Source: Strigamia acuminata (Eukaryota; Arthropoda; Chilopoda; Geophilomorpha; Linotaeniidae). Taken from it: a DNA stretch of 60,000 nucleotides. Every line of letters begins with the position of its first letter. Position 1 is the stretch's first letter. Shown piece by piece: positions 12,223 to 58,479 of this stretch. A program made the translations under genes and the position numbers. The notes below the pieces were generated by a model. That model was not told where the DNA came from. It worked only from the letters and a program-made list of their open reading frames with translations, and searched no databases. The stretch lies in contig OX442314.1 in the NCBI GenBank assembly GCA_949358305.1, positions 53,331,369 through 53,391,368 on the forward strand. The letters run 5' to 3'.

Positions 12223-12231
12223 GTGTAAGTG
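12223..12231. repeat. 9-bp target site duplication, left copy
   Basis: GTGTAAGTG directly abuts the left inverted terminus and is repeated exactly at 58471-58479 beyond the right terminus. The bases outside differ, so the duplication is exactly 9 bp. Confidence 0.9.
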
Positions 12232-12420
12232 ACGTGCATATAGTTGACAGCACATTGTTTCAGAAATGGCTGAAACGTTTGTAGTTTGTTAGTCATGGTT
12301 TGTATTGTTTGTATGCCAAGTTTTACGATTTGTATTCTGATAGAACTAGAATAAACCATGGTTTTCCAATGTGCTGTCAACTATATGCCTACAGCACACT
12401 TTTGCCAATTTGAACTTTTT
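12232..12420. repeat. Left terminal inverted repeat with an internal hairpin
   Basis: The terminal unit matches 58470-58282 in reverse complement with only scattered mismatches. Within it, the outermost GCATATAGTTGACAGCACAT sequence recurs inverted near 12370-12390. The outer about 155 bp therefore forms its own hairpin with arms of about 22 bp, nested in the larger terminal repeat. Confidence 0.8.
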
Positions 12421-13404
12421 TCAGCGGATTCTGTTAGTATTCCGTTAGTATTCATTTGTAATGTATAAATTTTCGTTTGTATTGATTTGCAACAAATTCT
12501 ACGACGTGTGCTGCCAACTTGATGCTGGAATACACGCCCCCAATTTCACTTTTCTTTACAGATTCTGTTAGTACTCAGTTAGTATAGATTTGTAATGTAA
12601 AAATTGTCGTTTGTATTGGTCCATGCAAGCCACAAAATTGATTTGACCGCTTTCGGGCACTCAGGGAAAAGTGTGTGCTGCCAACTTGATGCTGGAATAC
12701 ACACATCCAATTTCACTTTTCTTTACAGATTCCGTTAGTACTCAGTTAGTATTGATTTGTAATGTACAAATTGTCGTTTGTATTGGACCGTACAAGCCAT
12801 AAAATCGATTTGACCGTTTTCTTGCATTGCGGGAAAAACGTGTGCTGCCAACTTGATGCTGGAATACACGTCCCCAATTTCACTTTTCTCTACAGATTCT
12901 GCTAGTACTCTGTTAGTATTGATTTGTAATGTACAAATTGTCGTTTGTATTGGACCGTACAAGCCATAAAATCGATTTGACCGTTTTCTTGCATTGCGGG
13001 AAAAACGTGTGCTGCCAACTTGATGCTGGAATACACGTCCCCAATTTCACTTTTCTCTACAGATTCTGCTAGTACTCTGTTAGTATTGATTTGTAATGTA
13101 CAAATTGTCGTTTGTATTGGTCCATGCAAGCCACAAAATCGATTTGACCGTTTTCGGGCACTCAGGGAAAAGTGTGTGCTGCCAACTTGATGCTGGAATA
13201 CACACATCCAATTTCACTTTTCTTTACAGATTTCGTTAGTACTCAGTTAGTATAGATTTGTAATGTATAAATTGTCGTTTGTATTGGTCTCTGCAAGCCG
13301 CAAAATCGATTTGACTGGTTTCGGGCACTTGGGGTAAAGCGTGTGCTGCCAACTTGATGCTGGAATACACACATCCAATTTCACTTTTCTTTACAGATTT
13401 CGTT
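12421..13404. repeat. Left-arm 167-bp tandem array, outer part
   Basis: About six monomers. The CTTTACAG or CTCTACAG landmark recurs at 12554, 12721 and 12888, exactly 167 bp apart. Each monomer carries the phrase GCTGCCAACTTGATGCTGGA. The 167-bp unit is not a multiple of three, so ORFs read across it are artefacts of the repeat. The array is interrupted at 13405 by element A and resumes at 32888. Confidence 0.85.
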
Positions 13405-13408
13405 AGTA

Positions 13409-14369
13409 TGTAATGAGCCTAAATTATTATTAAATAAATAATAATAATTCTAGACTTATTGATGCTTAGACAAGACTTATCATAAAAACTACTCTCTAAT
13501 ATAAAACTCACAAAATGGTTTATTCTGACTTAGAATAAGATAAATTACAGTGATGAATAAAGCTTAATGGAAATAAGAAATGAAATAATAGATGAAATGA
13601 CGAATTAACTTCAAATCGACGTGGAAACGTTATTCTGACGATTCCAACGTTCCGGCGATGATAACGGCTCGTTTCGTCGCGCTTCTACGGCTCTCTTTCG
13701 ACGCTCGACTCGATTTTCTACTCGGCGTCGCTCCTCGGTGAAACGGACTTGTTCCGTGACTCAACTTCTTGAAATTGTCTGGCACAAATCGACTCCCGTC
13801 GATTTGCTTGGTCAGCCGGACTCTTTCCGGTACTTCTTCTACACGTTCTCCGCAACTCCGTCGTCTTGGCGGCGAAACTGCGACTCTTTCGCACAACAAT
13901 CTCTTCTCAACAATGTCGTTGAGACAAGATGAAATCTCACAATTGTATTCGTACAATTGCAAGAATGGACTCTAGCTGGATCCCTCTCAGCAAGAGTGTG
14001 GCTTCCCGTGTCACTAGTTGTGGTGGCACAAGATGAATCTAGCTGGATTCTTCACAGCAAGATTAGGAGTATAAAACTTCACGGAGGTTTTCACAAAATA
14101 CTGGAGGATTTCTCTGGGTTATTTTGTGTTGTTTCTCTGGCAAAGTTGAATTCATACTGAGGAGTTCTCACTCCTCTCAGGACTCATTTCCTGTTTGGAG
14201 GCTTGTGGGCTGGTTACCCTGGCAACCACCCACATTTCCTCCCACTCTACTTAGCTTTCTTGCCTGTAGACAGGAAGCATAAAAAACTCAAACTAAAATA
14301 TAATAAACTAAAATATAATTTTACAGACTTTTTTCTGTTACTTCCTTAGTGACCACTAGGGTCACTACA
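13409..14369 (-). repeat. 3' LTR of element A
   Basis: Starts TGTAATGAGCC and ends GTCACTACA. It matches the LTR at 31927-32887 over 961 bp; by eye I see only two substitutions (near 13421 and 13831), which points to a recent insertion. Confidence 0.95.
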
Positions 14370-14384
14370 CCTCCCTCCTTTTTA
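14370..14384 (-). other. Polypurine tract of element A
   Basis: The minus strand reads AAAAAGGAGGGAGG directly before the 3' LTR, the expected plus-strand primer. Confidence 0.75.
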
Positions 14385-14412
14385 GGAAGGATCCCCGATT
14401 CTTCCTTTACTC

Positions 14413-17400
14413 CTAGTCTTCGTATTGAGCAGTGGGGTCCAGGACTGGTACCTCACTCTCAGACACCGAAAATCGGGGCATTCCCCGAGTTGGACCCGAC
14501 GCTGCTCCATTATTGACATGGAGCCAAACTTCAGTAATGTCCGTCGTCGTCGGGAATACTCTCGCATAGTCCATGTCGTACTTCTCCCGTGTGCCCGTTG
14601 GTGCCTTACGGACAGCAATCACTCTTCGATGCTGGGTCACCCTTTTTGGTTCCCGGACCGCATTTTCCAGCCATTTGAGAGCGTCATGGCTCAAGGTGTT
14701 GCTGTAGATCAACATGGTTCTTGTGGCCTCGGATATTCGCAATTTTGGATAAAGGTAACGAATTTTCCCGAAATCTTGGTTTTTGCTTCTCCTCGCCCCT
14801 GGTTTGGGCGTTTTGTCGATGTTGGCCAACCCTCTTCTGGAGACGTCCGATTCCTTGGCCGAGGACTCAATTCCTTCTCGCCTACTTTGATCTATTTCGC
14901 TGCCACACGCCTCGGATTCGGAATTTCTTGCCGACCTGTTCATGGCCAATTGGTGGGCCATTGGCGTGTAGGTCGCAGCTGGTTTAGCTCGAGTTGAGTG
15001 TACGTTTGACATCCTCATTGGTGTGGTCGCCATCAGAATTGTTGGTACTTCTTCGATCGTGGGCGCAGGTGGTTCCATTGGAGCCCACTCCATTTGTTTC
15101 TGCTCCACAAAAGTACGGAACTTCTGTTGAGCCATTACGTTTTGATAATGTTGGACCCATTCAGCCCTCAGTCGCATCGCGCACTGGTCCGGCGTTTCCC
15201 CATTTCCCAGGACATCCTTCATTAGTTGTGCTCGTACTGCTGGCGGGTCTCTTAAGATGGAAGTCCAGTTTCCGATCATCTCGTTGGGGATTCCTAACGC
15301 GGCCGTCCACAGGAAAGTGGTGGCGATGAATGTCGTCTCGACTGAGGGGAAAACTCCTGGAAACATTACTCTGTAGAATGCGGCGTCTAGCAGTGGTTGG
15401 AACTGTCCGAGCCACTCCGTCGTTTGCAGTTCCACTGCTTGCTGCACGAACTCTCTCGCTCTCCTTCTGAGGTCGTTGATCGCTTCGTGAATCTGCGCGT
15501 TCTGGTACTCGTCTAAATTTGCCTTCAATAATCCTTGGTGGCAAAGTGGAAATCGCAGAAACATCTCCCAAAGTGGACGATAGTCTTTATCGAACCCCTC
15601 CTCTGGCTGCATTGCGGGATTATTCGAGTAAGGTGCCGTGGCCAAATTTGGAACGGGCAACGTGATGTTTACAGCAGGGATTTGCTCCGTGAACGGCAAA
15701 GTGTGTGGATTTACCCCTTGCTGTTCTCTTGGTTTAGCCTTTCGTGGGTCCTTCGCCTTTTGCGACTCGTCAACTCGAATCTCCACTTCCGCTTGCGGTC
15801 TCTTTACCGTTTCTCGTCTGTCTTCTGTTTGAGGCTTTACGGGTCTTCTTGGATCTCTTCCTCCGCGGATGATTGATGATCTCCCTCGTGGGCGTAATAT
15901 TCTCGGCTTCGATTTCCTCTCTTTAACCCCTTTCGCCATTTGGGCATGTTTTATCGCCAAAGCTTCATCCAACGTGGGTAGGTCGACGAAACTGTACGTC
16001 TCCGGTGGTGATTTCCTCGGAGTCGGTGTTGGAGGCACAGACCGTGGCGTCCACGTAATTGGTGTATGGGTACCAATGACTGGTGATCTTGGTGGAGTCG
16101 CTTGAGGCGTCCTTGGCCCTGTCGGACTTTTTTCCGTTTCCTCAAGTTCATAGGTGATCACGGACGTTATCTCCTGCGAAAGCTGCGTCTCTTCTGGTTC
16201 CTCTTCAGAAATTTGCATCTTCTCCTGACCTTCCAACGAAATTTCCCGCACCTCGTCTACAAGCACGTATTCATTTTCAGACGCAGAGTAGTATGAATCG
16301 CTGCTTTCTTCCACTTGGATTCTCAAAATATCTTCATCGTCCTGTGTCACAGTTCGTTTTGGACGCATTTCGGAGTATCGGTGCGATCGTTTCGCCTCGC
16401 TTTTCGCTCCTTGTCGCTTGGTTGACGAATTTCGACTTGAATGTTCTTGCCTTTCCCTCGGACTCAATTCCGGACTTCGACTGTCTCTTCTACGGGAACA
16501 GGAAACATATTTTACTTTACGTCGTTCCGACGAGTGACTTTGATGCTCCCTTGTTTCTTGTCGCATTCTTTCGTTTCGTTCAAGGGGTCTTGTTTCCCTA
16601 CTTCGGTTTCTCGACGTACTTTGCTTCGGCGGAGTTTCTTTCCTCCGTCTGTCGCGTCCTCTGTATCGAAGTGCTCCTCGGGTCCTTGCTTCCCTTCCTC
16701 TTCGAGCTAACTCATGTTGTTCAGATCGGAATTCATCATAGTTTCTATCTCTAGAATGGTGACTTCTCGATGACTGATGAGGTTTCGGACTTAATTCCGA
16801 CTTTTGTTGACTTCTGGACGCTGATCGACTTCTCGGATGGCGTGTGGATGTTGTAGATCTTTCTGACCTCTTTGGCGGAGTCTTCTCTCGCTGCACCGTA
16901 CTTCGTGGTCGTCTTGACGAATACTCCTCTTTTCGAGTTGTCTGGGGCGGTGTCTTTCTTCGACGCTCTGGACTTGGCTCCTGATCGGCCTGAGATCTTT
17001 TATCTCTACGCTCCCTTTCCTCCCTCTCTAGCCGTTGCCTTTTTACGTAATAGAGAGGTCCGAAGTCATCTCGCAACTCTGGTTTCTCCTTTGATACAGG
17101 AGTGATGTGGACACCAAGTACCCCTGCCATCGTCAATTGATGCATTTTATATTGAGAGTCCACGTAATAGGGTGGTACAGTTTCCAAATCTGGTTCGTCT
17201 AGCAATGCCTGCTCCGCCTGCCATTTCGCCTTCTTCTCCAAATACTCGGCTGCTACATCCGCCATGCCCTCCTGAAGTCGATTCATCACTTGCCGTGCAA
17301 ATTGAATTCGATTTGTCGCCGGGTCACAATAAATGACATAATCCTCCGCTTCTTCTGGAGTCATCGGAAAATCCTCGCCTATCAATTCGTTCCAAATTGG

Positions 17401-17643
17401 TCCATGTGTGTCCGTTAATATTGAAATTAATTTTAACATTTCATGGAAACACGTTTTGAAACCTTTGAACAGTCTTTTCAGGGTTCCCCAGCGTCGTTGC
17501 ATGGCTAATGAGATGAATTGTCTGACGTTGGCTGGTTTGTAGCCTCTCTGCTCGAATATTCTTTTCAACTTTCGATGGATTCTTCCCCGATAGAAGGTTC
17601 GTGGGACTCTCGCGTTTTTGGGTAATGCGTCCCATGATTCCAT
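14413..17643 (-). CDS. ORF3 of element A, novel third protein in env position
   Basis: 1076 aa. The N-terminal about 215 residues are helical (RGRIHRKLKRIF, MHQLTMAGVLG). Residues of about 215-430 form a strongly Arg/Ser-rich low-complexity region like SR splicing factors. A Pro/Thr-rich acidic linker follows, then a globular block (TFLWTAALGIP, WTSILRDP) and a C-terminal block (YPKLRISEATR, HRRVIAVRKAPT). The two globular blocks, and more weakly the N-terminus, match ORF3 of element B. I see no signal peptide, furin site or transmembrane helix, so it is not a typical envelope protein. It has no knuckle or enzyme motif I recognise. The reading frame is intact, and a plausible splice acceptor lies 15 bp upstream, so it may be made from a spliced subgenomic RNA. 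Function unknown; RNA binding or a capsid accessory role would be guesses. Confidence 0.85.
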   Translation of the reverse strand: MESWDALPKNARVPRTFYRGRIHRKLKRIFEQRGYKPANVRQFISLAMQRRWGTLKRLFKGFKTCFHEMLKLISILTDTHGPIWNELIGEDFPMTPEEAEDYVIYCDPATNRIQFARQVMNRLQEGMADVAAEYLEKKAKWQAEQALLDEPDLETVPPYYVDSQYKMHQLTMAGVLGVHITPVSKEKPELRDDFGPLYYVKRQRLEREERERRDKRSQADQEPSPERRRKTPPQTTRKEEYSSRRPRSTVQREKTPPKRSERSTTSTRHPRSRSASRSQQKSELSPKPHQSSRSHHSRDRNYDEFRSEQHELARRGREARTRGALRYRGRDRRRKETPPKQSTSRNRSRETRPLERNERMRQETREHQSHSSERRKVKYVSCSRRRDSRSPELSPRERQEHSSRNSSTKRQGAKSEAKRSHRYSEMRPKRTVTQDDEDILRIQVEESSDSYYSASENEYVLVDEVREISLEGQEKMQISEEEPEETQLSQEITSVITYELEETEKSPTGPRTPQATPPRSPVIGTHTPITWTPRSVPPTPTPRKSPPETYSFVDLPTLDEALAIKHAQMAKGVKERKSKPRILRPRGRSSIIRGGRDPRRPVKPQTEDRRETVKRPQAEVEIRVDESQKAKDPRKAKPREQQGVNPHTLPFTEQIPAVNITLPVPNLATAPYSNNPAMQPEEGFDKDYRPLWEMFLRFPLCHQGLLKANLDEYQNAQIHEAINDLRRRAREFVQQAVELQTTEWLGQFQPLLDAAFYRVMFPGVFPSVETTFIATTFLWTAALGIPNEMIGNWTSILRDPPAVRAQLMKDVLGNGETPDQCAMRLRAEWVQHYQNVMAQQKFRTFVEQKQMEWAPMEPPAPTIEEVPTILMATTPMRMSNVHSTRAKPAATYTPMAHQLAMNRSARNSESEACGSEIDQSRREGIESSAKESDVSRRGLANIDKTPKPGARRSKNQDFGKIRYLYPKLRISEATRTMLIYSNTLSHDALKWLENAVREPKRVTQHRRVIAVRKAPTGTREKYDMDYARVFPTTTDITEVWLHVNNGAASGPTRGMPRFSVSESEVPVLDPTAQYED

Positions 17644-17654
17644 CGCTTTTCTTG

Positions 17655-17668
17655 TCTATAAATTAAAT
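17655..17668 (-). promoter_or_regulatory. Candidate splice acceptor for ORF3 of A
   Basis: The minus strand reads TTTAATTTATAG followed by ACAAGAAAAGCG and the ORF3 ATG. It could serve a subgenomic mRNA; the donor was not identified. Confidence 0.35.
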
Positions 17669-18361
17669 TTTCATTAATTTTTTATCTTTTTACGAAATTA
17701 TTCTCAATTGTGTGTGTCATTTTCTTAATTTTTCGTTTCATAAAATTCTCGCCAGATGGCGTTCTTTCGTATATCGCGACGTATTTTCATGTCGCTTTTC
17801 TCAAGTTTTTGCCAGTATTTACTAATTTTGTCACATAAAACTAATTATTTCTGATAGTTTTAACTTAGTTTTAGCCTTCTTAGCGATATTCCATGCTTAT
17901 CTCGATCTTTTATCGGTTTTGTGATCGCGTCTCCGTATTTACGACTTATTTTGTTTCGTCTCTTACGATCATCGATAAATTTTTACTTTTATGACACGCA
18001 CAATTGATGAATAATGATAACTATTATTTTGGATCTCTTATCCTTAGTTTTTTCGACTTAATTCGATTTTTTACTACCTCTTCGTGTACCGGTTTCTTCG
18101 GTTTTGGCGGCGGACGAAAATCTTGATTCATCGTGGTGTTGATGATTGCTCCGTCCGGACTTCCTCGTAATTCCTTGTTGTTCGATCGTTTGATGCTTAG
18201 TTTAAATCACTCCAACGTTTTTGTTATTGTTTTGACGAATGTCTCCACACATGTGATTTTTACTTCACGTTGAATCGACATGCGGTTCGTTCAACCAATC
18301 ACGATCGAGCTGCGACGTCGTCCACTTCCGGACTCCCGAGTGACGTCGCTACCTTCTATTT
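17669..18361. other. Pol-ORF3 spacer of element A
   Basis: About 0.7 kb of AT-rich non-coding sequence separates the pol stop from ORF3. No gene or repeat is recognised. Confidence 0.5.
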
Positions 18362-21300
18362 TTAGAGGTAGTCTGGAGGTTTAATCCTCCCTCTGTCTCG
18401 AAGTGGATATTTCTTCAAGACAGCTTTCTTTTTAATTGTCTTGGGTTGATTTTCGCGCAGATCTTTATATCTTTGTTTTGTTTTCACTTTTTTCACCACT
18501 TCTCCCCCCTTTTTAGGAAACGACGCAACTTGTTCGTCTGTTTCCACAACTAAATTTTTTGGAAAAAGTGGCACATCAACTTGTGATTTCTGTTGCAAAG
18601 TTGCGCTCAATTCTTCATTAATATCTTCACTTTGTTTGACTTGCTGCTCGCTTGGAATTGCAAAATCTATTTCCTCATTATTTTCCGTGTTTGATGAACT
18701 TGGCGTTGTTTGTAATTCCTGTTGTTCTTGCGAAATTTGCGAATCTTGCAAATTTTGTGTTTGATCCAAAATTTGTGATTCTTCCGAATTTCCTTGATTT
18801 TGCGAATCGTCTAAATTTTGCATTTGACGCAAAGTTTGAGATTCTATTGAATTACTGCCTTGAATTTGTTCATTCTGCACGTTCTGCGAACTCTCTATAT
18901 TTGCAATTTCTTGCATTTCGGATGGTGATGGCTCGTCGAACAAAGTGTTAATAATTTTTCCTTCCGGGTTACTTTGTGTTTGGCCTTTTTCCCAAATTTC
19001 TTGATTAAATTCCGGGAAAAACGGCGTTAACTCGGACATGTGAATGGAACGCAAGATCTTATTATCTTTAAGTCGTCTTAATTTGACAGCTCCGCCCTGG
19101 TGAACTTTAATAATAACATATGGTCCACTTCTCTTGTCGGATAATTTCGCAGAAATTCCCTGTGACGCTTTTGACAAAGTGTGATCTTCTTTCCATACAA
19201 GGTCATTTGTTCGAAAATCTTGGAATTTCCCATCTAATTTATGGTTGTCCACACGCTCACGAAGGTCCATGATGTGTGCCATCATATGATGGTACGTGTC
19301 GCGAATGACCTTCTCTAATCGTTGGATGTAAATGTGTGGCTTATTTGGGTCAATTTTCAAAATTCCATCCAAAATTCGAGGATCCCACGGTATCCTAAAT
19401 TCTCTGCAACAATTCAAATATGCCGGCGAGTAATCACGGCCTGTTGTTGCTGTTGTGCGTATACTAAACGCTATCTCTCTTAGATATTCGTCCCAGCGCT
19501 TGTGGATCGATGTGTAGATTGACAAAATATATTTTAAATCTCTGTTGGTCCTTTCCACGGTGTTGGCTTGGGGATGATATGGTGATGTAAATCGCGGCAC
19601 GATTTTGAACTTTTTACAAAATTCATGATAAAGTCGTGCTTTAAATTGCGGTCCGTTATCCGATATGATTCGGAGCGGAAATCCCCAGCCCATGCATGTG
19701 TCATATAAACAGTCTGCTATATCTTGTGCCACCGGGTCTGCCAGCGGATAAAGTTCTGGCCAGCGAGTGGCTATATCCAGAATCACCAAAATATAGTTAT
19801 TTCCTGTTTCCGTTCTAGTTAACGGTCCTACTAAATCGATACTCAAACATTCAAATGGCGCATACGGGCCAATTTGAGCTGGTTCTACTCGTGTCCTTGT
19901 TCTGGGTTTACACGCTTGGCAGCGAGAACAATGTTTAATAAATCGAGCTGTATCTCGTTTCATCCCCTCCCACGTATACACTTGTCGCATTCGATAAAGT
20001 GTCCGTGCTATTCCACAGTGGCTCGCCAAAGGATGTCCGTGCATTTGCCACAGAACTCTAAATCTCAATGATCTCGGCACTACAATTTTAAGTGCTCTCG
20101 AATCCTCTGCCAAATCATCCGACATTGTTGGGTGATATTTGAGTAAAAGGTTTTCTTCTACAAGGTGTTTTGTTGCTAAAATCCGATATTTTTTTCTATG
20201 CAACGGAGTTTTCACGTATGTGGGAAATTGCTCAGTTTCAAGATAATGTCGCATGGCCTGACAGTGGCGGTCTTTGATCTGGTGATCAACGAGCTCTTCT
20301 CGTGTCGGCGGTGTGCAGTTTGCCTGTTCCGTCACTTTTGCAATAAATGCCGTGACCATCTCGTTTTCAGAAGTTGGCATGTACTGCCATTCTTTCTTTT
20401 CTTTTGGACTCTGTTCCAACTCTTCACTTGATGCGCTATACATCTGACACCAATACGATGCGACTTCTTCGTCTTCAGCCAATGGTCGTGGTAATTGGTT
20501 CCAATTTCCTACCACCCATTTGCGTGGCTCAGTTGGACAATATCGCAGATCGCCGTCAGCTTCTCCTGTGTCCTCCGCGTCGCAAATTATCTGAATTGGC
20601 GCCCTGGACAATGCGTCTGCCAAAGTGTTGGTTGTCCCTTTCAAATACTGAATTTGGAAATTGTAAGACATTAATTCCATCTGCCAACGGGCAAGACGGC
20701 CTGCTGGCTCTTCCAGTCTCATCAACCATTTCAGGGCCTCATGGTCAGTTTGTACGACAAAGCTCGTAAATTCGAGGTACGGCCTAAATTTTCGCAGTGC
20801 CCATATGACAGCTAAACACTCGAGGTCGGTGGCGCCGTAATTGAGTTCTGCTTGCTGCAGACATCGGCTGACATAGACGCATGGGGATTCTATCATCTGG
20901 CCGTCAATTTCCTTCATTTGCATTAAAGCAGCGCCTAAACCCTTTTTGCTTGCATCTGTTCTTACAATGAAAGGTTGATCTAAATTTGGCAGGTGCATTG
21001 TCTTTGCATCAGTTAATAACTTTTTTATTTCATCAAATGCAACTTGGTGCTCATTTTCCCATAGGAACTCTATTCCTTTCTTCAACAGTGGGCGTAGTGG
21101 TGCCGCTACAGTTGCCAAATCTTTTAAAAGACGGTGGAAAAAGTTGACCATTCCAAGGAATCTCTGGAGCTCAGTCAAATTCTTTGGCGCTGGAAATTCC
21201 GAGATTGCCGCTACTTTCGCGGGGTCTACACTTAATCCATTAATTCCTAATTTATATCCTAGGAATTTGAGTTCCTTCCTACAGAATTTGGACTTAGTCG

Positions 21301-23436: not shown

Positions 23437-23443
23437 GTTTTTT
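23437..23443 (-). other. A_AAA_AAC -1 frameshift site of element A
   Basis: The gag frame reads ACA AAA AAC, the canonical X_XXY_YYZ heptamer, ten codons before the gag stop. The -1 frame is open from here into pol. Confidence 0.75.
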
Positions 23444-26980: not shown

Positions 26981-26985
26981 GACAT
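26981..26985. repeat. 5-bp target duplication of element C, left copy
   Basis: GACAT, repeated at 31500-31504 on the other side of element C. Confidence 0.9.
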
Positions 26986-42086: not shown

Positions 42087-42109
42087 GCTCAGACCGTGGG
42101 GCTGAGCGA

Positions 42110-49200: not shown

Positions 49201-50422
49201 TACCCCTTCGACAGATCCATCGTCGTAACCCAAGAAAAGGGGCTAAGCTCTCTCAAAATGGATTCGATAGACGGCATCTGTATGGGATCTATCTCTGTCA
49301 CCGCGTTTAATGGGCGGTAATCAATGCATAGGCGTGGGTCCGAGCCCGGGCGCATCACGAGCACAACTCGCGTCGCGTATTCTCCCTGGGCCTCGGAGAC
49401 AATGCCACTGTCTAGCATTTCTTGGCACATTTTTTGCACTATTTCACGTTTTTGCGGGTTCATTCCCTTATACGCAACTCGTATAGGTTTATTATCCGTC
49501 AATTTAATTTCGTGAATAGCCCTATTCGTTCGGCCCGGTTTTTTCGACAGGATCCCCTCATATTTAAGTAGGACCCTTCGTAGGGCTGCCGCTTCGTTTA
49601 ATTCTAAAGCGGCGTCGGCGACAAGTGTTTCCACTACATTGTCCCGTTGCAATTCTGTTACGAATGCTTTAAAATCGTAGTCTTGAACGAATTTCTTTAG
49701 GCCTTTCTCCCACTGTGTCTTGTCGGCCGCTTCTTTTACAAGAGCTGGTGGCACGACAATTGCGGGTCTTTCCTTATCATTTCTGATATAATTCCAAGAT
49801 TTCGTTATTGGATTTGGTTGTATTTCCATTGACGCCATGAGGTCTAAGCCCAACAGAAAAATTCTGTCGCATGTGGGCAGGACCAGGAAAGGGTGCTGTT
49901 CTACCCCTCCGAGCCACTCCATGGTCAATAATATAACTCCTTTTGGACGCGCCATTCCGTTGGCGGTTTTTAGACGTATATTTTTATTAACGCCTTTTAT
50001 CTTATCGGTGAGACCCAATGATGCTACTATGTCTTCGGAAACGAACGAGCGATCTGCTCCCGAGTCTAGTAGTCCCATAATTTTTTCACGTTCTATTGTC
50101 ATGGGCAACATGCATAGGCGGTTGGTGTATTCGACCGCCACGTTGCACATGAAAACACGAAATTCTTCTGTGTCTTCGACTACTTGAGGTAATTCTTCAA
50201 GCAGTAGGTTCGGTTCTTCCGCCTCAGCCTCAGCGTTTGCGGTAATTACCTGCAAAGCGTTGTTGGCCCTGTCTTGAATTTGGGCGTTAGCTATGTCACT
50301 ACCCATTTCTTTGACTGGTGGCGGCTTATCGAACCCTTTGTTAAACCCCTTCTTCTTCATGAATGGCGCAGACGGTCGAGAAGTTATTTCTTCGCCGCCT
50401 GCGCTGACTCGTTTTTTGACTC
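46290..50422 (-). CDS. pol: Pol polyprotein of element B (protease, RT, RNase H, integrase)
   Basis: Open in the -1 frame from the slippery sites at 50429-50411; the first internal ATG is at 50360. Numbered from that Met, the protease LLDSGAD is near residue 98. RT follows with WVTTMDLSKGYWQV, MPFGLVNAP and the catalytic YLDDIV. RNase H shows HTDASRVGLGAALL and TDHQALQWL. The integrase zinc domain is HGHPLASHAG and CQRCQACK, and the DDE residues lie in LSVDVMGP, IISDNGPQF and NPVERLNRD. Clearly the same lineage as element A Pol but shorter at the N-terminus. It ends in a charged tail with no chromodomain. All catalytic residues are present. Confidence 0.95.
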
Positions 50423-53400
50423 GTTTTTTGCCATGGCGAGTTTAATCTCTGCCATCTGCTTCATTATTGCGTCAAATTTAGCGTCTTCTTTCGCTGTTCT
50501 TGGGCACTCATTGGAATAGTGACCCGGTTGGTTACACTTGAAACAACGAATATTTGATTTGTCTCTTGGGGCTTCAGTCGATTTTTTCTTTTCAGGGTCT
50601 GCTTTCGACGGTGGCGTGTAATTTTTTCGAAAATACTTCGGAATTCGGCCGGCATTTGGTTTTAACCTGGCGCGAAATTCTTCTACCGCTCTATCTCGAT
50701 GGATGAGATGTACTAGCGGTCCTTCCTCATCGCAACCCGTTGATAAGGTATCGCGATAGCTTCGTATTTCTTCGTCCGTCGAATAATCGTCTTTTTCTTC
50801 TTTTTTGTCTGATTTTCCGGCATCTTGTCCGGCTTCCTCCCCCTCCTTGACCTCCTCCAGTGTCGCTTGCATGGCTGACGCTGTCGGTGCCTTTTTAGGG
50901 GCGGCCAAAGGGTTGGAAGGCAGCGTGGATGTCAGTTTATTTTTTATTTGTAAACCAACGCTAGCTTCTGCCAGCTCCATTATACCGCTAAGATATTCAG
51001 TAGGGCGCATAATTTTATCTGTCGCCCCATATCTTTCCGCACTCAACTTGAGACGTTTAGCGGTTGCTGCTTTCTCCGCTTCTGGTAAAGCGGAATAATA
51101 TCTTTTCTCGATATCTATCGTGTTCTCGAACAGGAAGGCGCTCATCTCCTCGTAGCTGCCTCCTGTCGGTGCCCTTTCTTCAAGTAGCACCCGTTGCGAG
51201 TACTCCGACAAACCGCCGAGAAAGAAAAGGTTGAATCCCGTGGCATGAAATTCCATCGGGGCCTTTTCGAACAACAATCTGGCGCGAATGTCGTAATCCA
51301 TTATGGTTTCACCAGGCATCTGGCGAAGACCTCGCATCTTTCGGCTCACCTCTTCGGGTGTCTCGCCGTAGCGCAGGTCGAATCTCATTAAAAAGTCGTC
51401 CCAATTGACGCCTTTCAATCCTTGGTACCACTCACGTGCCGAGCCTGTCATTAGCTCGACAATACCGTGGGTGAGCATGTCTCCTACGGTGGCTTTGGTG
51501 GCAGTCTTAATTCGAATTACTTCGTCAAGGAAGCGATCTCCCGCTTTCCATGACCCGTCGAAACGGTTCTGAATATAAAATTGCCACCTAATATTCCCGG
51601 TAACACTCATGGTGTCACGTCGGGAGACAGCGTATTTTTTCTTTACGCGGTCACCAGTGCTACGATTACGATCGTTTCGTTTGCTCAGATCAATTCCCTC
51701 GGCTTTTAACGAGCCGAGTAGGGCTCTTCCAAGCTCTCCCATCGTATACTGCCGACCCGTCGAATCGGTAAACGCGCTTTGTCGGGGAAGGTCCTGAAAC
51801 TCCTCCCGTCGGTGGTCGCTATTTTCCGATCGACGTCGTTTCTCTCTATCGCGCGGAGAGTTGGATCTCTTCCGGCGATTACTTGATTTTTCCTTTCGTC
51901 TGTCGTCGTTGGATGAGGGGTCGGAGCTGGGGTCGGGAGACGGTGAGCGGCGTGGCGGGTTGCGCCGTGAAGAGTTTGACTCTTTCCGGCCCCTACGACG
52001 GTCGTCACGTTCCCTTTCTCTGCGTTCATCGCGTTCTCTTTCCCTTCGTCTTTCTCCGGAACCTCTCTCCGAATCGTGATGACTGGGTGCATTTGACTCC
52101 AGTCCATCTGACGACGAATCACTATTTCCGTAGTGAAAATATTTCGGTCTTTCATCGCGTTTGCCTTCTTCTCGCGAAGAGGTGCGATCATGCGATTGTC
52201 TCCTTGACGACTCGTCGTCTTTAAGGATGGGCACTGGTTGTTGCCACTCAGTCCCTTGTGGATTATCATGCTGTTGGCTTGTGAGAGCTTGCTCTTCATT
52301 TCGCCTAGCATTATTAGCGTTGATTAATCGCGTTATCGCATTATTTGTGGCTGAATCGAGAGCTTGCATGCGGGGCCGAGTTTGTTGTTCTCTGGCCGAC
52401 GCATCTCTCTTGCGCGGAGTAGCTGGTGTTGCTCTCTCCGGCTGGGGTTTGGGTTTGGCCTTCGGCGTGCGCTTTGGGTCTCCCTCTAGGCTCTCGTCGG
52501 ACAGCTCGGATGAACTGACCTCTGGTTTGCGGACGGATTTCGGGTCATCTCGTCGCAATCTGGCCATAAATGCTCGCTCTGCTTCTTGTTGCGAGTGGAA
52601 AGCATATCGATGTGCTCTCAGGGCTCGGTCAACTATTTCTACCTCCTCGGGAGTAGTCGGATTGGGCTGGGTTCTGCCGTACTCGAGAGCTTGCGCTTCT
52701 CTTTCCGCCAGCTTCCTCCGTCTCTCGCGAATGGCTTGACGAGCCTCGTTCTCTGCATCCGCTTCAAATTGAGCGGAATCAACCAATTGTTGAGCGTGTG
52801 CACCTTCAACAATGGTGATTTGTGGGGATACACTGTGCGCTTTTAAAGCTGCACGTACGATCTGCAACGTTTCGTACACGGTAATTTTCCCCGTCGGAAG
52901 GGTGTATCTCACTCCTTCCGCCTGTGCCAATTGCATCGCATCAATCAAGGTGCCCGAGACGCTGTAAGGCTGGCTCGAAACACGCTTGACAGAGGATGAG
53001 TTGGACTTGTGTCCTTCGGACCTGACCGAAGCTGGGCGGCTTTGCGTAATTGGCGTGTTTAGTGCCGAATTAGCGGTCGTATTTGAGGCCGTCTTTTGTA
53101 TCGGAGACGCTGCTTTCGGACTGCCCACCTCGGTGTCGTGCGTTAGACGAGGCGATTGGTTACGGGATAAAACCTCGTTTCCGCTCGTCTCGCCGTCACG
53201 GTTAGAACGCGGCAGTTTGGAGTGAGATTGCTCTTCACCCCGCTCTGTCTCGTCCAATCGCTGCCTCGTCTCGGTGCGAGACGGGTGCGATGCCTCGGAT
53301 GCGCTTCTACGATCGGGTTTAGGCTTACGCCGTTTTTGCCTCGCTTCGTGCGCTGAGGCTTTGGGTAAGGGACCTCCAGATCGCAAGTGATAGTCGGCGC

Positions 53401-53467
53401 CTTTACGACTGCCGGCTCTCTTGTTTGCGTCGGAGTCGGAATCTGTTACTCGGGTATTATCTGCCAT
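50384..53467 (-). CDS. gag: Gag of element B
   Basis: 1027 aa from the ATG at 53467 (MADNTRVTDSDSDANK), about 70 nt after the primer site. The N-terminal two thirds is charged and low complexity, with Arg/Glu and Arg/Asp runs (ERRRERERDERRERERDD) and an SR-like section. A capsid-like block follows (RFDGSWKAGDRFLDEVIR, REWYQGLKGVNWDDFLMRF), similar to FDGGWQIGTQFLDEV of A. One CX2CX4HX4C zinc knuckle (CFKCNQPGHYSNEC) is near the C-terminus. The last 20 codons contain two A_AAA_AAC heptamers. Intact. Confidence 0.95.
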   Translation of the reverse strand: MADNTRVTDSDSDANKRAGSRKGADYHLRSGGPLPKASAHEARQKRRKPKPDRRSASEASHPSRTETRQRLDETERGEEQSHSKLPRSNRDGETSGNEVLSRNQSPRLTHDTEVGSPKAASPIQKTASNTTANSALNTPITQSRPASVRSEGHKSNSSSVKRVSSQPYSVSGTLIDAMQLAQAEGVRYTLPTGKITVYETLQIVRAALKAHSVSPQITIVEGAHAQQLVDSAQFEADAENEARQAIRERRRKLAEREAQALEYGRTQPNPTTPEEVEIVDRALRAHRYAFHSQQEAERAFMARLRRDDPKSVRKPEVSSSELSDESLEGDPKRTPKAKPKPQPERATPATPRKRDASAREQQTRPRMQALDSATNNAITRLINANNARRNEEQALTSQQHDNPQGTEWQQPVPILKDDESSRRQSHDRTSSREEGKRDERPKYFHYGNSDSSSDGLESNAPSHHDSERGSGERRRERERDERRERERDDRRRGRKESNSSRRNPPRRSPSPDPSSDPSSNDDRRKEKSSNRRKRSNSPRDREKRRRSENSDHRREEFQDLPRQSAFTDSTGRQYTMGELGRALLGSLKAEGIDLSKRNDRNRSTGDRVKKKYAVSRRDTMSVTGNIRWQFYIQNRFDGSWKAGDRFLDEVIRIKTATKATVGDMLTHGIVELMTGSAREWYQGLKGVNWDDFLMRFDLRYGETPEEVSRKMRGLRQMPGETIMDYDIRARLLFEKAPMEFHATGFNLFFLGGLSEYSQRVLLEERAPTGGSYEEMSAFLFENTIDIEKRYYSALPEAEKAATAKRLKLSAERYGATDKIMRPTEYLSGIMELAEASVGLQIKNKLTSTLPSNPLAAPKKAPTASAMQATLEEVKEGEEAGQDAGKSDKKEEKDDYSTDEEIRSYRDTLSTGCDEEGPLVHLIHRDRAVEEFRARLKPNAGRIPKYFRKNYTPPSKADPEKKKSTEAPRDKSNIRCFKCNQPGHYSNECPRTAKEDAKFDAIMKQMAEIKLAMAKNESKNESAQAAKK
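50411..50429 (-). other. Two in-frame A_AAA_AAC frameshift sites of element B
   Basis: The gag frame reads GCA AAA AAC GAG TCA AAA AAC GAG, so two canonical -1 heptamers (50429-50423 and 50417-50411) lie 12 nt apart in the same register. The -1 frame is open from either into pol. Confidence 0.75.
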
Positions 53468-53519
53468 TTCTTGCTTTGGGTATGATGTAATCACAGGTTA
53501 GAATCAGTTATTCGACTTG

Positions 53520-53537
53520 ATCCCGGACAGGCCCCCA
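53520..53537 (-). other. Putative primer binding site of element B
   Basis: Two bases after the 5' LTR the minus strand reads TGGGGGCCTGTCCGGGAT. Its complement ends in CCA and looks like a tRNA T-arm plus acceptor end. The tRNA is not identified. Confidence 0.55.
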
Positions 53538-53539
53538 CG

Positions 53540-54557
53540 TGTCGCGCTCAACTCTAACCGTCGCTAACTCGTGGGTTGATTACTTAATTCGACTAACTCA
53601 CTACCGCTTTGCTCAAGCGGTTTACCCAAAGAAATGATTACACAGATATAAAAGGTAAAATATAATATAGATTTATTCTGCGGGGCAATATACAGATATA
53701 TCTTATATATATATATATAAAGGGTAAGTAAAAGGTAAATCGGAATGGGTGATGGGAAATGGAAAGGCAAAGGTAAGATGAAAGCTGGCTGGAATCGGCG
53801 AGGTCGTCTGTTGTCTTGTGCGTGTCCAAGATGGCGTCCTCGTTGTGGCAACGTGATGTCGTCTGGGGCCGGCGTGGCAATATGGCGTCCTCGGCTCGTC
53901 TCTGGCTGGTCCTTCGGGCTCACGCTGGTCGGGCGCGAGTGAATGCTTAGTTAAAAGACTTACTTCGGGCTGTTGTCTAGGTTTTTGTGTGGTGTCCGGC
54001 GATCACACAGCGGCGGACTCTTCTGGTTCCCGGCGGTCACACAGCGGCGGGAACGCTCGTCGTGGTTTTACTGCAGTTTAGGCTTGTGCGACCGTTTGTC
54101 TGCACAACTCGCTAAACTGGAGTGGTTTTTACTATTTCTAGCTGGTGTGCTAAAATAGTGTGGTAATCTTATCTCGCAGGTTACTCTGCGGAGTTTGACA
54201 CTGACCAAACGTACTCACGGTAAATTGTCCTTTGTCCTCGGTCAATCCCAGTATTTTTACTTGGGCCTGATCTTGTAGGACGACGGATTTTACGTGTGTT
54301 TCTCGTTTGATGGTTGTGTTGGTTCTGCCCGCTCAGTGCAAGGCACATTCCTTTGCACAAAGCGGGGTCGACAGGTGACCGGAATCACCCAATGGTGGGG
54401 TGGACGAGCCATCCCCACTCCCTCAGGGCAGACGCCTGTCCATTGACTAGATGTCAATGCACTGAGGGAAGGGAGACGCGCTTGCGGCTCCCCTTACACC
54501 CGAAACGAGGTCACGAGAGAAACTCTTCGTTGACCCCGGTCCAGTCGGGTCACAACA
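53540..54557 (-). repeat. 5' LTR of element B
   Basis: 1018 bp, no difference from 41056-42073 seen by eye. An AATAAA on the minus strand near 53672 and a TATA-rich run near 53705-53720 are possible signals. Confidence 0.95.
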
Positions 54558-54778
54558 AATTTAACCACCATTACCATGCCTACAATTTTAGATTCCCGAC
54601 CAATTGGAAGAAAAGGACATTCCGTATTACGACACGCATCTAAAACATTAAAGAATTGTTAATAAACTTTTAATTAACGGGAATTTCCATAATATTTTAC
54701 TGCATCGGAAATAAAATTAACATTCGGGCATTTTAGTCATGTCATACTCGTGTAGGGATTCGCACAGATCGTCGCTGT
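54558..54778. repeat. Right-arm module resumed after element B
   Basis: In reverse complement it continues the match to the left arm (33890 down to 33680), including the phrase TAATGGTGGTTAAAT that defines the empty site. Confidence 0.75.
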
Positions 54779-55045
54779 TTAACCACTTTCTTCGATGGAA
54801 ATCCCTTCATCACACCTTTTGGCCATCTGCACTGCTTTTTGCGCAGAATTTACTTCTCGAAGATGATCTGCTACAACGACTGACATGTGTTCCAAATCGT
54901 CCAGAGCTTGTAGTTCCGGCATCAGTCCGTTGTCCACTTTTGTTGCCGACTTCGTCTTGTTCTTCTGACCACATTTCTCGCTCATCGACGATTTCTCCGG
55001 CTTCTTCAACGCGCGTAGTCTCGGTAAAAAATAAACACGCAGCAC
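54779..55045 (-). other. Small ORF shared by both arms, right copy
   Basis: About 88 codons on the minus strand. From KKPEKSSMSEK to the stop it matches the left copy at 33446-33676 with a few substitutions (ISIEESG against ISIKESG). Most differences keep the frame, and there are no indels in the frame. A TTTTTTACCGAG stretch just upstream resembles a splice acceptor. Protein not recognised. Confidence 0.45.
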
Positions 55046-55756
55046 ATCTAGAACTGTTTATTTTTTTTCAATTTGACTGTTGTGTTTGGGTTCGACCAAA
55101 CACCCAGGGTCAAATCCAAAAAAAAAAAAAATTGGTTCGACTCACTTGCCAGCCATGCTGACACAAACGCACCTTTTACGGCATCGATCGCCAACCATCG
55201 TCGAATCCAAACACTTTTTTTTTTACGTATAATTTTTTGGATTCGACGGTGGGTGAGGGATCGATGCCGTAGAAGGTGCAGTTGAGCCGGCATGGCTGAA
55301 TTTATCCAACACCGTTTTTTTATTTATTTTTCTTATTTTATTCTTTTGGATTTAACCGTGGGTGTTTGGCCGATCGTCGCCATCATTTCGTCTTCTCGCT
55401 CGAGACAGCTCGGATCGAGCGCCACATGTTCCAAATAATCCACGGCTTGCAGTGCCGGCATGTCCGTTTTCCAACTGAAAAAAGAAGCTTACAACACAAA
55501 AAAAAACAAAAAAATTAATACAAACAACAACCCACTTCGTGCGATCTGAACTTCGAATCGTCCAACTTATTTCAGCGCATACTTCAAGTCTTCGTAACGC
55601 AGTAATTCGATGCTAAGTCCGCCATTACAATTCATAAATTAATAATAATAATCAACATTACCGTGTATTACTTCTTTGTTATTTCAATAACAATACTATT
55701 GTAAGTTGCCAAGGAAATTCCTTGGCAACCTCTTTCTATTGTTCGATCACATTAAA
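55046..55756. other. Right-arm interior
   Basis: Holds the third hairpin module (55135-55308), a copy of the LQAVDYLEHV segment on the minus strand (55372-55460), and a perfect palindrome GTTGCCAAGG-AAATT-CCTTGGCAAC at 55706-55730. No intact gene. Confidence 0.5.
55135..55308. repeat. Hairpin module, copy 3
   Basis: Same inverted-repeat module as 40000-40150 and 40290-40458. Confidence 0.65.
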
Positions 55757-58260
55757 TCAATTTGTACATTACAAATCAATACAAACAAAGTACTAACAGA
55801 ATCTGTAGAGAAAAGTGAAATTGGGTGTGTGTATTCCAGCATCAAGTTGGCAGCACACATTTTTCCCGGAGTGCCCGAAACCGGTCAAATCGATTTTATG
55901 GCTTGTAGAGACCAATACGAACGACAATTTATAGATTACAAATCAATACTAACAGAGTACTAACAGAATCTGTAAAGAAAAGTCAAATTGGGTGTGTGTA
56001 TTCCAGCATCAAGTTGGCAGCACACATTTTTCCCGGAGTGCCCGAAACCGGTCAAATCGATTTTATGGCTTGTAGAGACCAATACGAACGACAATTTATA
56101 GATTACAAATCAATACTAACAGAGTACTAACAGAATCTGTAAAGAAAAGTGAAATTGGGTGTGTGTATTCCAGCATCAAGTTGGCAGCACAGGCTTGTCC
56201 CCGAGTGCCCGAAAGCGGTCAAATCGATTTTGTGGCTTGTACGGTCCAATACAAACGACAATTTGTACATTACAAATCAATACTAACAGAGTACTAACAG
56301 AATCTGTAAAGAAAAGTCAAATTGGGTGTGTGTATTCCAGCATCAAGTTGGCAGCACACATTTTTCCCGGAGTGCCCGAAACCGGTCAAATCGATTTTAT
56401 GGCTTGTAGAGACCAATACGAACGACAATTTATAGATTACAAATCAATACTAACAGAGTACTAACAGAATCTGTAAAGAAAAGTCAAATTGGGTGTGTGT
56501 ATTCCAGCATCAAGTTGGCAGCACACATTTTTCCCGGAGTGCCCGAAACCGGTCAAATCGATTTTGTGGCTTGCACGGACCAATACAAACGACAATTTAT
56601 ACATTACAAATCTATACTAACTGAGTACTAACAGAATCTGTAAAGAAAAGTGAAATTGGGTGTGTGTATTCCAGCATCAAGTTGGCAGCACAGGCTTGTC
56701 CCCGAGTGCCCGAAAGCGGTCAAATCGATTTTGTGGCTTGTACGGTCCAATACAAACGACAATTTGTACATTACAAATCAATACTAACAGAGTACTAACA
56801 GAATCTGTAAAGAAAAGTCAAATTGGGTGTGTGTATTCCAGCATCAAGTTGGCAGCACACATTTTTCCCGGAGTGCCCGAAACCGGTCAAATCGATTTTA
56901 TGGCTTGTAGAGACCAATACGAACGACAATTTATAGATTACAAATCAATACTAACAGAGTACTAACAGAATCTGTAAAGAAAAGTCAAATTGGGTGTGTG
57001 TATTCCAGCATCAAGTTGGCAGCACACATTTTTCCCGGAGTGCCCGAAACCGGTCAAATCGATTTTGTGGCTTGCACGGACCAATACAAACGACAATTTA
57101 TACATTACAAATCTATACTAACTGAGTACTAACAGAATCTGTAAAGAAAAGTGAAATTGGGTGTGTGTATTCCAGCATCAAGTTGGCAGCACAGGCTTGT
57201 CCCCGAGTGCCCGAAAGCGGTCAAATCGATTTTGTGGCTTGTACAGACCAATACAAATGACAATTTATACATTACAAATCAATACTAACAGAGTGCTAAC
57301 AGAATCTGTAAAGAAAAGTCAAATTGGGTGTGTGTATTCCAGCATCAAGTTGGCAGCACACGCTTGTCCCCGAGTGCCTGAAAGCGGTCAAATCGATTTT
57401 GTGGCTTGTACAGACCAATACAAATGACAATTTATACATTACAAATCAATACTAACAGAGTGCTAACAGAATCTGTAAAGAAAAGTCAAATTGGGTGTGT
57501 GTATTCCAGCATCAAGTTGGCAGCACACGCTTTACCCCAAGTGCCCGAAACCGGTCAAATCGATTTTACGGCTTGCAGAGACCAATACAAACAACAATTT
57601 GTACATTACAAATCAATACTAACAGAGTGCTAACAGAATCTGTAAAGAAAAGTCAAATTGGGTGTGTGTATTCCAGCATCAAGTTGGCAGCACACGCTTT
57701 ACCCCAAGTGCCCGAAACCGGTCAAATCGATTTTACGGCTTGCAGAGACCAATACAAACAACAATTTGTACATTACAAATCAATACTAACAGAGTGCTAA
57801 CAGAATCTGTAAAGAAAAGTCAAATTGGGTGTGTGTATTCCAGCATCAAGTTGGCAGCACACGCTTTACCCCAAGTGCCCGAAATCGGTCAAATCGATTT
57901 TGCGGCTTGCAGAGACCAATACAAACGACAATTTATACATTACAAATCAATACTAACTAAATACTAAAAGAATCTGTAAAGAAAAGTGAAATTGGGTGTG
58001 TGTATTCTAGCATCAAGTTGACAGCACACGCTTTTCTCTGAGTGCCCGAAAGCGGTCAAATCGATTTTGTGGCTTGCACGGACCAATACAAACGACAATT
58101 TGTAGATTACAAATCTATACTAACTGAGTACTAACAGAATCTGTAAAGAAAAGTGAAATTGGGTGTGTGTATTCCAGCATCAAGTTGGCAGCACACTCTG
58201 TAGAATTTTTTGCAAAGCAATACAAACGAAAATTTATACATTACAAATGAATACTAACGG
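55757..58260. repeat. Right-arm 167-bp tandem array
   Basis: About 15 monomers in opposite orientation to the left-arm array. Part of it has a three-monomer higher-order period: the blocks beginning at 56159 and 56660 are 501 bp apart and look identical over at least 300 bp. Landmark TTCCAGCATCAAGTTGGCAG recurs every 167 bp. The 101-codon open frames here are by-products of the repeat. Confidence 0.9.
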
Positions 58261-58470
58261 AATACTAACAGAATCTGCAGAAAAAAGTTCAAATTTGGAA
58301 AAGTGTGCTGTAGGCGTATAGTTGACAGCACATTGGAAAACCATTGTTTATTCTAGTTCTATCAGAATACAAATTGCCAAACTTGGCATACAAACAATAC
58401 AAACCATGACTAACAAACTACAAACGTTTCAGCCAATTCTGAAACAATGTGCTGTCAACTATATGCACGT
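58261..58470. repeat. Right terminal inverted repeat with internal hairpin
   Basis: Mirror of 12232-12420, ending ...CTATATGCACGT. The internal hairpin arms (GTATAGTTGACAGCACATTG near 58316 and its inverse near 58445) are kept. Confidence 0.8.
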
Positions 58471-58479
58471 GTGTAAGTG
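58471..58479. repeat. 9-bp target site duplication, right copy
   Basis: GTGTAAGTG, identical to 12223-12231. Confidence 0.9.

What the first reader, a model, noticed from the sequence alone, without database searches (positions are those of the whole stretch)
12223..58479. A 46-kb fold-back insertion with a 9-bp target duplication splits a Gag-like gene
The two ends are inverted copies beginning ACGTGCATATAG, flanked by exact GTGTAAGTG copies, and the two halves of the interrupted gene rejoin in one frame when one copy is removed. That proves a single transposition event of a very large inverted-arm element. Fold-back arms and 9-bp duplication resemble Drosophila Foldback and Mutator-type elements, but the 167-bp subrepeats, the central 38-kb hairpin and the gene cargo do not match a family I know.
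Basis: partly seen in the sequence, partly recalled or inferred. Interest (0 to 1): 0.88.

Follow-up and report, generated by a model that had tools for sequence, protein, structure and literature searches.

The report
Foldback transposon swollen by nested retrotransposons
A jumping DNA element of about 13 kb with long, repeat-filled inverted arms landed in a gene-like sequence and carries three retrovirus-like elements, so it looks 46 kb long; elements of this kind are already known from flies and worms.

Summary
A 46,239-bp insertion (12232-58470) has inverted ends and an exact 9-bp duplication (GTGTAAGTG), and the split reading frame continues across the flanks. It is not a 46-kb element with cargo genes. 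It is a Foldback-type DNA transposon of about 13.3 kb containing two LTR retrotransposons (13409-32887, 41056-54557). A third LTR element sits inside the first, and a DIRS-like fragment lies in the core. The "cargo" is mostly their gag/pol genes, and the "38-kb hairpin" is the transposon's own arms pushed apart. The host genome was searchable: among the loci read, three other both-ended copies were found (10,576, 9,761 and 3,243 bp). Two have exact 9-bp duplications of different sequence, the third 7 of 9. The 10,576-bp copy is a near-identical sister without the retrotransposons. Arms of these two copies carry 8-15 tandem 167-bp units, each repeating the end motif, and unit arrays are inherited arm by arm. 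Of 132 interior ORFs in the four copies, none has a Pfam DDE-type transposase domain; a MULE transposase acting in trans is inferred from the 9-bp duplication. Closest known: Tetris (Drosophila virilis) and Tm1 (Meloidogyne). Verdict: new member of a known kind.

The parts
12223..12231 (.). left 9-bp target site duplication GTGTAAGTG
   Evidence: read directly; exact match to right copy
58471..58479 (.). right 9-bp target site duplication GTGTAAGTG
   Evidence: read directly
12232..13408 (+). outer part of left arm: terminal domain, then 6 starts of the tandem 167-bp unit (the last cut by R1)
   Evidence: inverted match to 57263-58470, 90%; tandem array 12505-13408; units counted
12232..12391 (+). 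terminal palindrome: end motif facing its own inverted copy, 22-bp stem
   Evidence: DNA fold z-score -7.2, 0 of 200 shuffles fold as well; both motif copies listed at each end
13409..32887 (-). nested LTR retrotransposon R1 (19.5 kb with R3): LTRs 13409-14369 and 31927-32887 (2 differences in 961), 4-bp TSD AGTA, zinc-knuckle (gag) ORF 23407-27174, pol ORF 18362-23464, third ORF 14413-17655
26986..31499 (-). LTR retrotransposon R3 nested in R1: 134-bp identical LTRs, 5-bp TSD GACAT, pol ORF 27263-30349 (no protease match)
32888..34215 (+). inner part of left arm (rest of the 167-bp array, then inner inverted modules 33308-33890 and 33886-34215)
   Evidence: inverted matches to 54558-55150 and 40722-41056, 92-93%
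34216..40721 (.). core: mosaic containing pieces of dispersed repeats; no DDE-type transposase domain found
   Evidence: two tested stretches match over their full length only here and in the C3 copy, other hits are partial; no MULE match by tblastn; Pfam scan of ORFs of 60 aa or more
35799..36277 (-). fragment of a protease-like ORF (weak Peptidase_C98 match, below cut-off)
   Evidence: E 0.0024; five other partial matches at four places
36278..37642 (+). truncated DIRS-like retroelement fragment with most of a tyrosine-recombinase ORF (36273-37208)
   Evidence: 99.6% identical over 1,366 bp to locus L044 (C1:19772769), which has a reverse transcriptase domain upstream
40722..41055 (-). innermost module of right arm
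41056..54557 (-). nested LTR retrotransposon R2 (13.5 kb): LTRs 41056-42073 and 53540-54557 identical (0 of 1,018), 4-bp TSD AATT, gag ORF 50384-53497, pol ORF 46290-50441, third ORF 42110-44899
54558..58470 (-). rest of right arm: inner module, 15 starts of the 167-bp unit (array 55758-58196), terminal domain
58471..59083 (-). 5' part of the interrupted, weakly Gag-like ORF
   Evidence: open frame; full-length match only to itself among scored candidates
11816..12222 (-). 3' part of the interrupted ORF, ending in a stop
   Evidence: open in the frame predicted by arithmetic; matches only itself

Best explanation
It is a non-autonomous Foldback-type DNA transposon of about 13.3 kb with arms of roughly 2.5 and 4.2 kb. 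It jumped by cut-and-paste into a weakly Gag-like reading frame and made a 9-bp duplication. A transposase made elsewhere, most likely of the Mutator (MULE) superfamily, probably recognises the outer ~19 bp and the further copies of the same motif in the terminal palindrome and in every 167-bp unit. Arms lengthen and shorten by unequal exchange or slippage within each array. Two LTR retrotransposons, a third nested in one of them, and a DIRS-like fragment inflate this copy to 46 kb; the three other both-ended copies lack them. Shown: ends, duplications, copies, nesting, motif repetition, arm-wise inheritance of units. Inferred: the MULE source, motif binding, the exchange mechanism, and that the retrotransposons entered after the jump.
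For: Exact 9-bp duplications at 3 of 4 both-ended copies, each of different sequence, and 7 of 9 at the fourth. The sister copy C3:11841751-11852326 shares two core stretches at 99.8% (1,674 and 1,706 aligned bases); it and the other two both-ended copies show no match to R1, R2 or the DIRS piece. LTR pairs, TG...CA ends and separate 4- or 5-bp duplications for R1, R2 and R3. The motif GTGCTGYCAACTNNATGC is found 28 times in the window with up to 2 mismatches against 0.03 expected; 27 of 28 are in the arms and 23 of those are one per 167-bp unit start. Of 46 unit starts in the window and C3 copies, 44 units were compared (2 cut ones dropped): 43 find their best match in the corresponding arm of the other copy or in their own array, and one ties between the two arms of the other copy; identical units three apart show multi-unit duplication in the window's right array. 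One copy (C1:32279477-32289237) has a right end alike for only 19 bp (18 of 19) yet an exact duplication, so long arms may not be needed at both ends. At least 118 MULE-domain matches exist in the genome.
Against: No DDE-type transposase domain was found in 132 interior ORFs of 60 aa or more from the four both-ended copies. Inward of 50 ends, MULE matches (115 of 118 typed) lay at 11.9 and 22.8 kb, plus one at 10.3 kb that in fact lies outside the C1 copy. Of 17 further end-pattern matches with 1-2 mismatches, one has a MULE 2.7 kb inward and one 43.8 kb inward; I judged the 2.7-kb case a chance palindrome within an inverted repeat, which is a judgement and not a test. P-type: none of 117 within 60 kb inward of the 50 ends. 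Merlin-type: 1 of 19 at 31.7 kb. Ends begin ACG, whereas a survey reports conserved G/C in the first three bases of most arthropod MULE ends (PMC13359780, passages). Mean unit identities separate arms only weakly: corresponding arms of the two copies 0.91-0.92 but 0.87 for the short left remnant, different arms 0.88-0.90. Timing of retrotransposon entry relative to the jump is unresolved, because LTR and core divergences are all 0-0.2%.
Confidence: 0.82

Rival explanations
1. A Galileo-like element: a Foldback-shaped element moved by a P-superfamily transposase.
For: One Galileo copy in Drosophila willistoni has arms of 4.2-4.7 kb with ~140-bp tandem repeats and an inserted transposon and lacks a transposase segment (PMC4168063, passages). 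P-type domains are abundant in this genome, 117 matches.
Against: Duplications here are exactly 9 bp in three copies, against 7-8 bp for Galileo. None of 117 P-type matches lies within 60 kb inward of the 50 ends.
Confidence: 0.1
2. One giant 46-kb transposon that moves as a unit with gag, pol and tyrosine-recombinase genes as functional cargo.
For: All these sequences lie between one pair of ends with one duplication. Entry of the retrotransposons before the jump is not excluded.
Against: R1, R2 and R3 each have their own LTRs and duplications. The three other both-ended copies show no match to them. The recombinase ORF is a truncated DIRS-like piece that also occurs elsewhere after a reverse transcriptase.
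Confidence: 0.03
3. Element driven by its own tyrosine recombinase (Crypton-like or another tyrosine-recombinase DNA transposon).
For: A PF00589 ORF lies in the core.
Against: The ORF belongs to a DIRS-like retroelement fragment that begins at 36278, shared at 99.6% with an independent locus; the other both-ended copies lack it. A 9-bp duplication is not expected from a tyrosine recombinase (recalled).
Confidence: 0.02
4. Assembly artefact: false inverted duplication.
For: Long inverted and tandem repeats are hard to assemble; no reads could be checked here.
Against: Arms differ in unit number and sequence (15 against 8 unit starts, about 10% divergence), and like structures stand at other places with other duplications.
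Confidence: 0.03

Closest known systems
Tetris (Drosophila virilis), Foldback transposon, PMC4079207 (abstract and parts of Results and Discussion read)
   Same: Non-autonomous; arms made of a terminal domain, a variable array of long tandem units (~220 bp) and an inner domain; middle of variable content without apparent coding capacity; 8-10 bp duplications; tandem unit shares a stretch with the terminal domain; few complete copies; no autonomous copy found.
   Different: Unit is 167 bp here; no satellite-size array seen in the matches listed; this copy carries nested LTR elements; sequences could not be compared because Tetris was not held.
Tm1 Mutator/Foldback family (Meloidogyne), PMC3169594 (abstract and two sections read, one in part)
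   Same: Composite arms with variable numbers of repeats that differ between the two ends of one element; 9-bp duplications; most copies non-autonomous.
   Different: Repeat unit ~14 bp; asymmetric 7-bp outer motifs; a Phantom-type MULE transposase was found in one copy, none found here.
Galileo (Drosophila, P superfamily), PMC4168063 (passages)
   Same: Long arms, tandem repeats in the arms of one copy, inserted transposons, copies without transposase.
   Different: 7-8 bp duplications with a palindromic target motif; transposase of the P superfamily.
Foldback FB / FB-NOF (Drosophila melanogaster), recalled; only search listings seen
   Same: Fold-back arms with internal repeats and a 9-bp duplication (recalled).
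   Different: Much shorter repeat units (recalled); sequence not compared.

Membership tests
Foldback-type elements (structural class) | long inverted arms containing tandem subrepeats | tested here: met
Foldback-type elements (structural class) | subrepeat number varies between arms and copies | tested here: met
   8 and 15 unit starts in the window copy, 12 and 11 in the C3 copy
Foldback-type elements (structural class) | several copies with target site duplications | tested here: met
   4 both-ended copies read, 3 exact duplications and 1 at 7 of 9
Mutator (MULE) superfamily | target site duplication of about 9 bp | tested here: met
   9 of 9 bp in three copies
Mutator (MULE) superfamily | MULE transposase between the same ends | tested here: inconclusive
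   none in the four both-ended copies; no convincing MULE match inward of other ends; many interiors unread
Mutator (MULE) superfamily | conserved G/C in the first three bases of the ends (PMC13359780) | tested here: inconclusive
   ends begin A-C-G
P superfamily (Galileo) | 7-8 bp duplication | tested here: not met
   9 bp
P superfamily (Galileo) | P-type transposase between the ends | tested here: inconclusive
   none of 117 matches within 60 kb inward of 50 ends; none among interior ORFs
Merlin superfamily | IS1595-type transposase between the ends | tested here: inconclusive
   19 matches, one 31.7 kb inward of an unpaired end; none among interior ORFs
Tetris family by descent | sequence similarity to Tetris ends | not testable with these tools
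   no Drosophila virilis sequence held
Crypton-like tyrosine-recombinase transposons | own tyrosine recombinase present in copies | tested here: not met
   recombinase belongs to a nested DIRS-like fragment and is absent from the three other both-ended copies

The most novel reading that the evidence does not exclude
The family is moved by a transposase outside the superfamilies searched (MULE, P, Merlin). Its 19-bp end ACGTGCATATAGTTGACAG has a motif that is repeated inward as an internal palindrome and then once per 167-bp unit, so that the arms work as long arrays of binding sites that the element can shed at one end without losing mobility.
Probability: 0.08. Interest if true: 0.55.

Novelty: new member of a known kind. 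Interest (0 to 1): 0.33.

Why it matters
It shows how an ordinary Foldback element can pass for a giant cargo transposon when retrotransposons nest in it. Two near-identical sister copies, one clean and one loaded, let arm evolution be followed unit by unit: arrays change length within arms, and no recent homogenisation between the two arms was seen. The repeated end motif gives a concrete, testable map of likely transposase binding sites. For classification it is a further Foldback element with 9-bp duplications whose autonomous partner is not known.

Tried and rejected
Tyrosine recombinase as the element's own enzyme: rejected, it is a DIRS-like fragment. Two pol genes in one 19.5-kb retrotransposon: resolved as R3 nested in R1. 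MULE 2.7 kb inward of an end-like match at C1:45807612 (2 mismatches): the match lies in a palindrome flanked by inverted coding-like repeats and I judged it chance. MULE at C1:8408641, 11.9 kb inward of a decayed end: no left end in the stretch read nor among the listed pattern matches. Empty site: no second full-length copy of either half of the interrupted ORF, so none could be shown. With up to 3 mismatches the end pattern gave 144 + 154 matches against 383 + 367 for the reversed control, so 3-mismatch matches were not used on their own; no control was printed for exact matches. The 50 ends are the 40 places plus 10 pattern matches with 0-2 mismatches; the 17 other 1-2 mismatch matches were checked against the MULE and Merlin lists and against only 15 of the 117 P-type matches. 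Rfam at gathering level and the tRNA scan: nothing.
Full report
OBSERVATION. The 9-bp sequence GTGTAAGTG stands at 12223-12231 and 58471-58479. Between them lies a 46,239-bp insertion whose two ends are inverted copies, identical for the first 34 bp and 90% complementary over 1,208 bp. On the minus strand the frame that starts at 59083 stays open to the right duplication. Counting bases with one duplication copy left out, the next full codon starts at 12220; that frame is open for 134 codons to a stop at 11816-11818, and the two other frames stop within about 12 codons. The interrupted ORF is weakly Gag-like only: Retrotrans_gag E 0.089 and Gag_p24_C E 0.11, both below cut-off and listed beside other equally weak families. 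Part of the first half is 71-73% identical to 39 other places (40 of 48 candidates scored); the second half matches only itself.

WHAT FILLS THE 46 KB. Self-comparison shows two long direct-repeat pairs. R1 has 961-bp LTRs at 13409-14369 and 31927-32887 with 2 differences and is flanked by AGTA. R2 has 1,018-bp LTRs at 41056-42073 and 53540-54557 with none and is flanked by AATT. Both read on the minus strand. Each pol ORF matches reverse transcriptase, RNase H and integrase, and an aspartic protease (below cut-off in R1); each ORF before pol has a zinc knuckle. R1 seemed to have two pol genes. A 134-bp identical repeat pair (26986-27119 and 31366-31499), starting TG, ending CA and flanked by GACAT, shows a third LTR element, R3, nested inside it. 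Leaving out R1 and R2 by coordinates, the insertion is about 13.3 kb. The inner inverted matches 33308-33890 / 54558-55150 and 33886-34215 / 40722-41056 are then the inner parts of its two arms.

TYROSINE RECOMBINASE. The core ORF at 36273-37208 matches PF00589, which at first suggested a tyrosine-recombinase transposon. The host genome has two further near-identical copies (98% and 100%). In the locus at C1:19772769 the shared 1,366 bp (99.6%) is preceded by a reverse transcriptase domain, as in DIRS-like retroelements. The window holds a fragment that begins at 36278. The sister copy and the two other both-ended copies show no match to it.

OTHER COPIES. The host assembly (237.5 Mb, 157 contigs, unnamed) was searchable. 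The first 188 bp gave 40 scored matches of 65 candidates, and the end pattern gave 26 exact matches (with 3 mismatches allowed it is not above its control). Four copies with both ends were found among the loci read: the window copy; C3:11841751-11852326 (10,576 bp, GATAAATTG on both sides); C1:32279477-32289237 (9,761 bp, TTCAGCAAG on both sides); and C6:4699514-4702756 (3,243 bp, flanks alike at 7 of 9). Two more loci (L021, L023) have a left end and a truncated right end. The C3 copy lies in the opposite orientation and shares core stretches of 1,674 and 1,706 bp at 99.8%. Two core stretches tested in the genome match at full length only in these two places; parts of them resemble dispersed repeats at about 68-94% (40 candidates scored in each). 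The window and C3 cores differ between 35612 and 37658, where the C3 copy has other, partly arm-like sequence. The C1 copy has a long left arm, but its right end is alike for only 19 bp (18 of 19). At C6:11305974 the arm appears split by about 15 kb (matches at 11305970-11306188, and again from 11320979), with an ORF 63% identical to R2's pol between, so nesting is not unique to the window; that is inferred from coordinates.

ARM ANATOMY. Each arm has a terminal domain, a tandem array of 167-bp units and inner modules. The first 160 bp fold on themselves with a 22-bp stem (z-score -7.2, 0 of 200 shuffles as good). The motif GTGCTGYCAACTNNATGC, which is the end sequence read inward, occurs 28 times in the window (up to 2 mismatches) with 0.03 expected; 27 of 28 lie in the arms: two in each terminal domain and one at each of 23 unit starts. 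The one outside (31526) lies in R1. Unit starts number 6 + 2 (left, split by R1) and 15 (right) in the window, and 12 and 11 in the C3 copy. Of these 46, two cut units were dropped. Of the 44 compared, 43 have their best match in the corresponding arm of the other copy or in their own array, and one ties between the arms; identical units lie three apart in the window's right array. Means separate less: 0.88-0.90 between different arms, 0.91-0.92 between corresponding arms, but 0.87 for the two-unit left remnant against its corresponding arm. This fits array growth and loss within each arm and no recent homogenisation between the two arms of one element. A genome search with one unit gave 122 matches in 37 candidate places; many lie at known ends, several others were not examined, and I saw no longer array in the list.

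WHAT MOVES IT. A Pfam scan of 132 interior ORFs of 60 aa or more from the four both-ended copies (41 window, 30 C3, 44 C1, 17 C6) matched only the nested tyrosine recombinase, the protease-like fragment and one marginal family (CotJA, E 0.0074); introns would hide a gene cut into smaller pieces. tblastn with the large ORFs of 13 MULE loci found nothing in the window or in loci L009-L028. The genome holds at least 118 MULE-domain, 117 P-type and 19 Merlin-type matches. Inward of 50 ends, MULE matches within 40 kb lie at 10.3 kb (in fact just outside the far end of the C1 copy), 11.9 kb and 22.8 kb (115 of 118 typed); P-type none within 60 kb; Merlin one at 31.7 kb. Among 17 weaker end matches, MULEs lie 2.7 kb and 43.8 kb inward of two. 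The 2.7-kb case is a palindrome within an inverted repeat that I take for chance. The 11.9-kb case has no left end in the stretch read. The MULE assignment rests on the 9-bp duplication and on precedent.

COMPARISON. In Tetris (PMC4079207: abstract, first part of Results, first part of Discussion read) arms have a terminal domain, ~220-bp tandem units that share 37 bp with the terminal domain, an inner domain and a middle without apparent coding capacity; duplications are 8-10 bp; no autonomous copy was found, and the authors propose the Mutator superfamily. Tm1 (PMC3169594: abstract, section on arm motifs, first part of Discussion) has 9-bp duplications and a Phantom-type MULE transposase. 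Galileo (PMC4168063, passages) has 7-8 bp duplications and a P-type transposase, with one copy showing tandem repeats and an inserted transposon in 4.2-4.7 kb arms. A 2026 survey of arthropod MULEs (PMC13359780, passages) gives arm lengths of 13-1,193 bp in its text (its table lists up to 1,527 bp in Hemiptera) and mostly conserved G/C at the ends. The arms here are longer and start ACG, which is mild evidence against a plain MULE.

VERDICT. The structure is real and well explained as a Foldback-type element loaded with nested retrotransposons. It is a new member of a known kind; the transposase is the open question.

Noticed in passing
window 26986-31499 within 13409-32887 within 12232-58470 within the ORF 11816-59083: Four-level nesting: short-LTR element R3 in LTR element R1, in the Foldback element, in a weakly Gag-like ORF; the three LTR pairs are 99.8-100% identical, so the insertions look recent.
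   Followed up: yes
window 14413-17655 and 42110-44899 (minus strand): R1 and R2 both carry a large third ORF (1,080 and 929 aa) after pol with no Pfam match; the two are only weakly alike (24% over 109 aa).
   Followed up: partly
L018, L027, L028 (C6 at 4.2, 5.17 and 5.14 Mb): Element ends lie in the same 10-kb stretches as ASC-type sodium channel genes; L027 and L028 share flanking bases, so these copies may have spread by segmental duplication.
   Followed up: partly
genome-wide: At least 118 MULE, 117 P-type and 19 Merlin domain matches, and 28 matches of near-equal score to a second tyrosine-recombinase family (two of them compared: 98.6% identical); many transposase matches lie in long open frames.
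   Followed up: no
window 35740-36277: Fragment of a protease-like ORF on the minus strand beside the DIRS piece, with five other partial matches at 81-88% (four places) in the genome; source unknown.
   Followed up: partly
window 34612-35181: Piece of the core is about 82% identical to a dispersed repeat with many equal-scoring copies, so the core is at least partly a mosaic of other repeats.
   Followed up: no
window 10127-11401 (+): RhoGAP-domain ORF next to the element; the large protein search scored no match for it at E 0.001 or better, which is odd.
   Followed up: no
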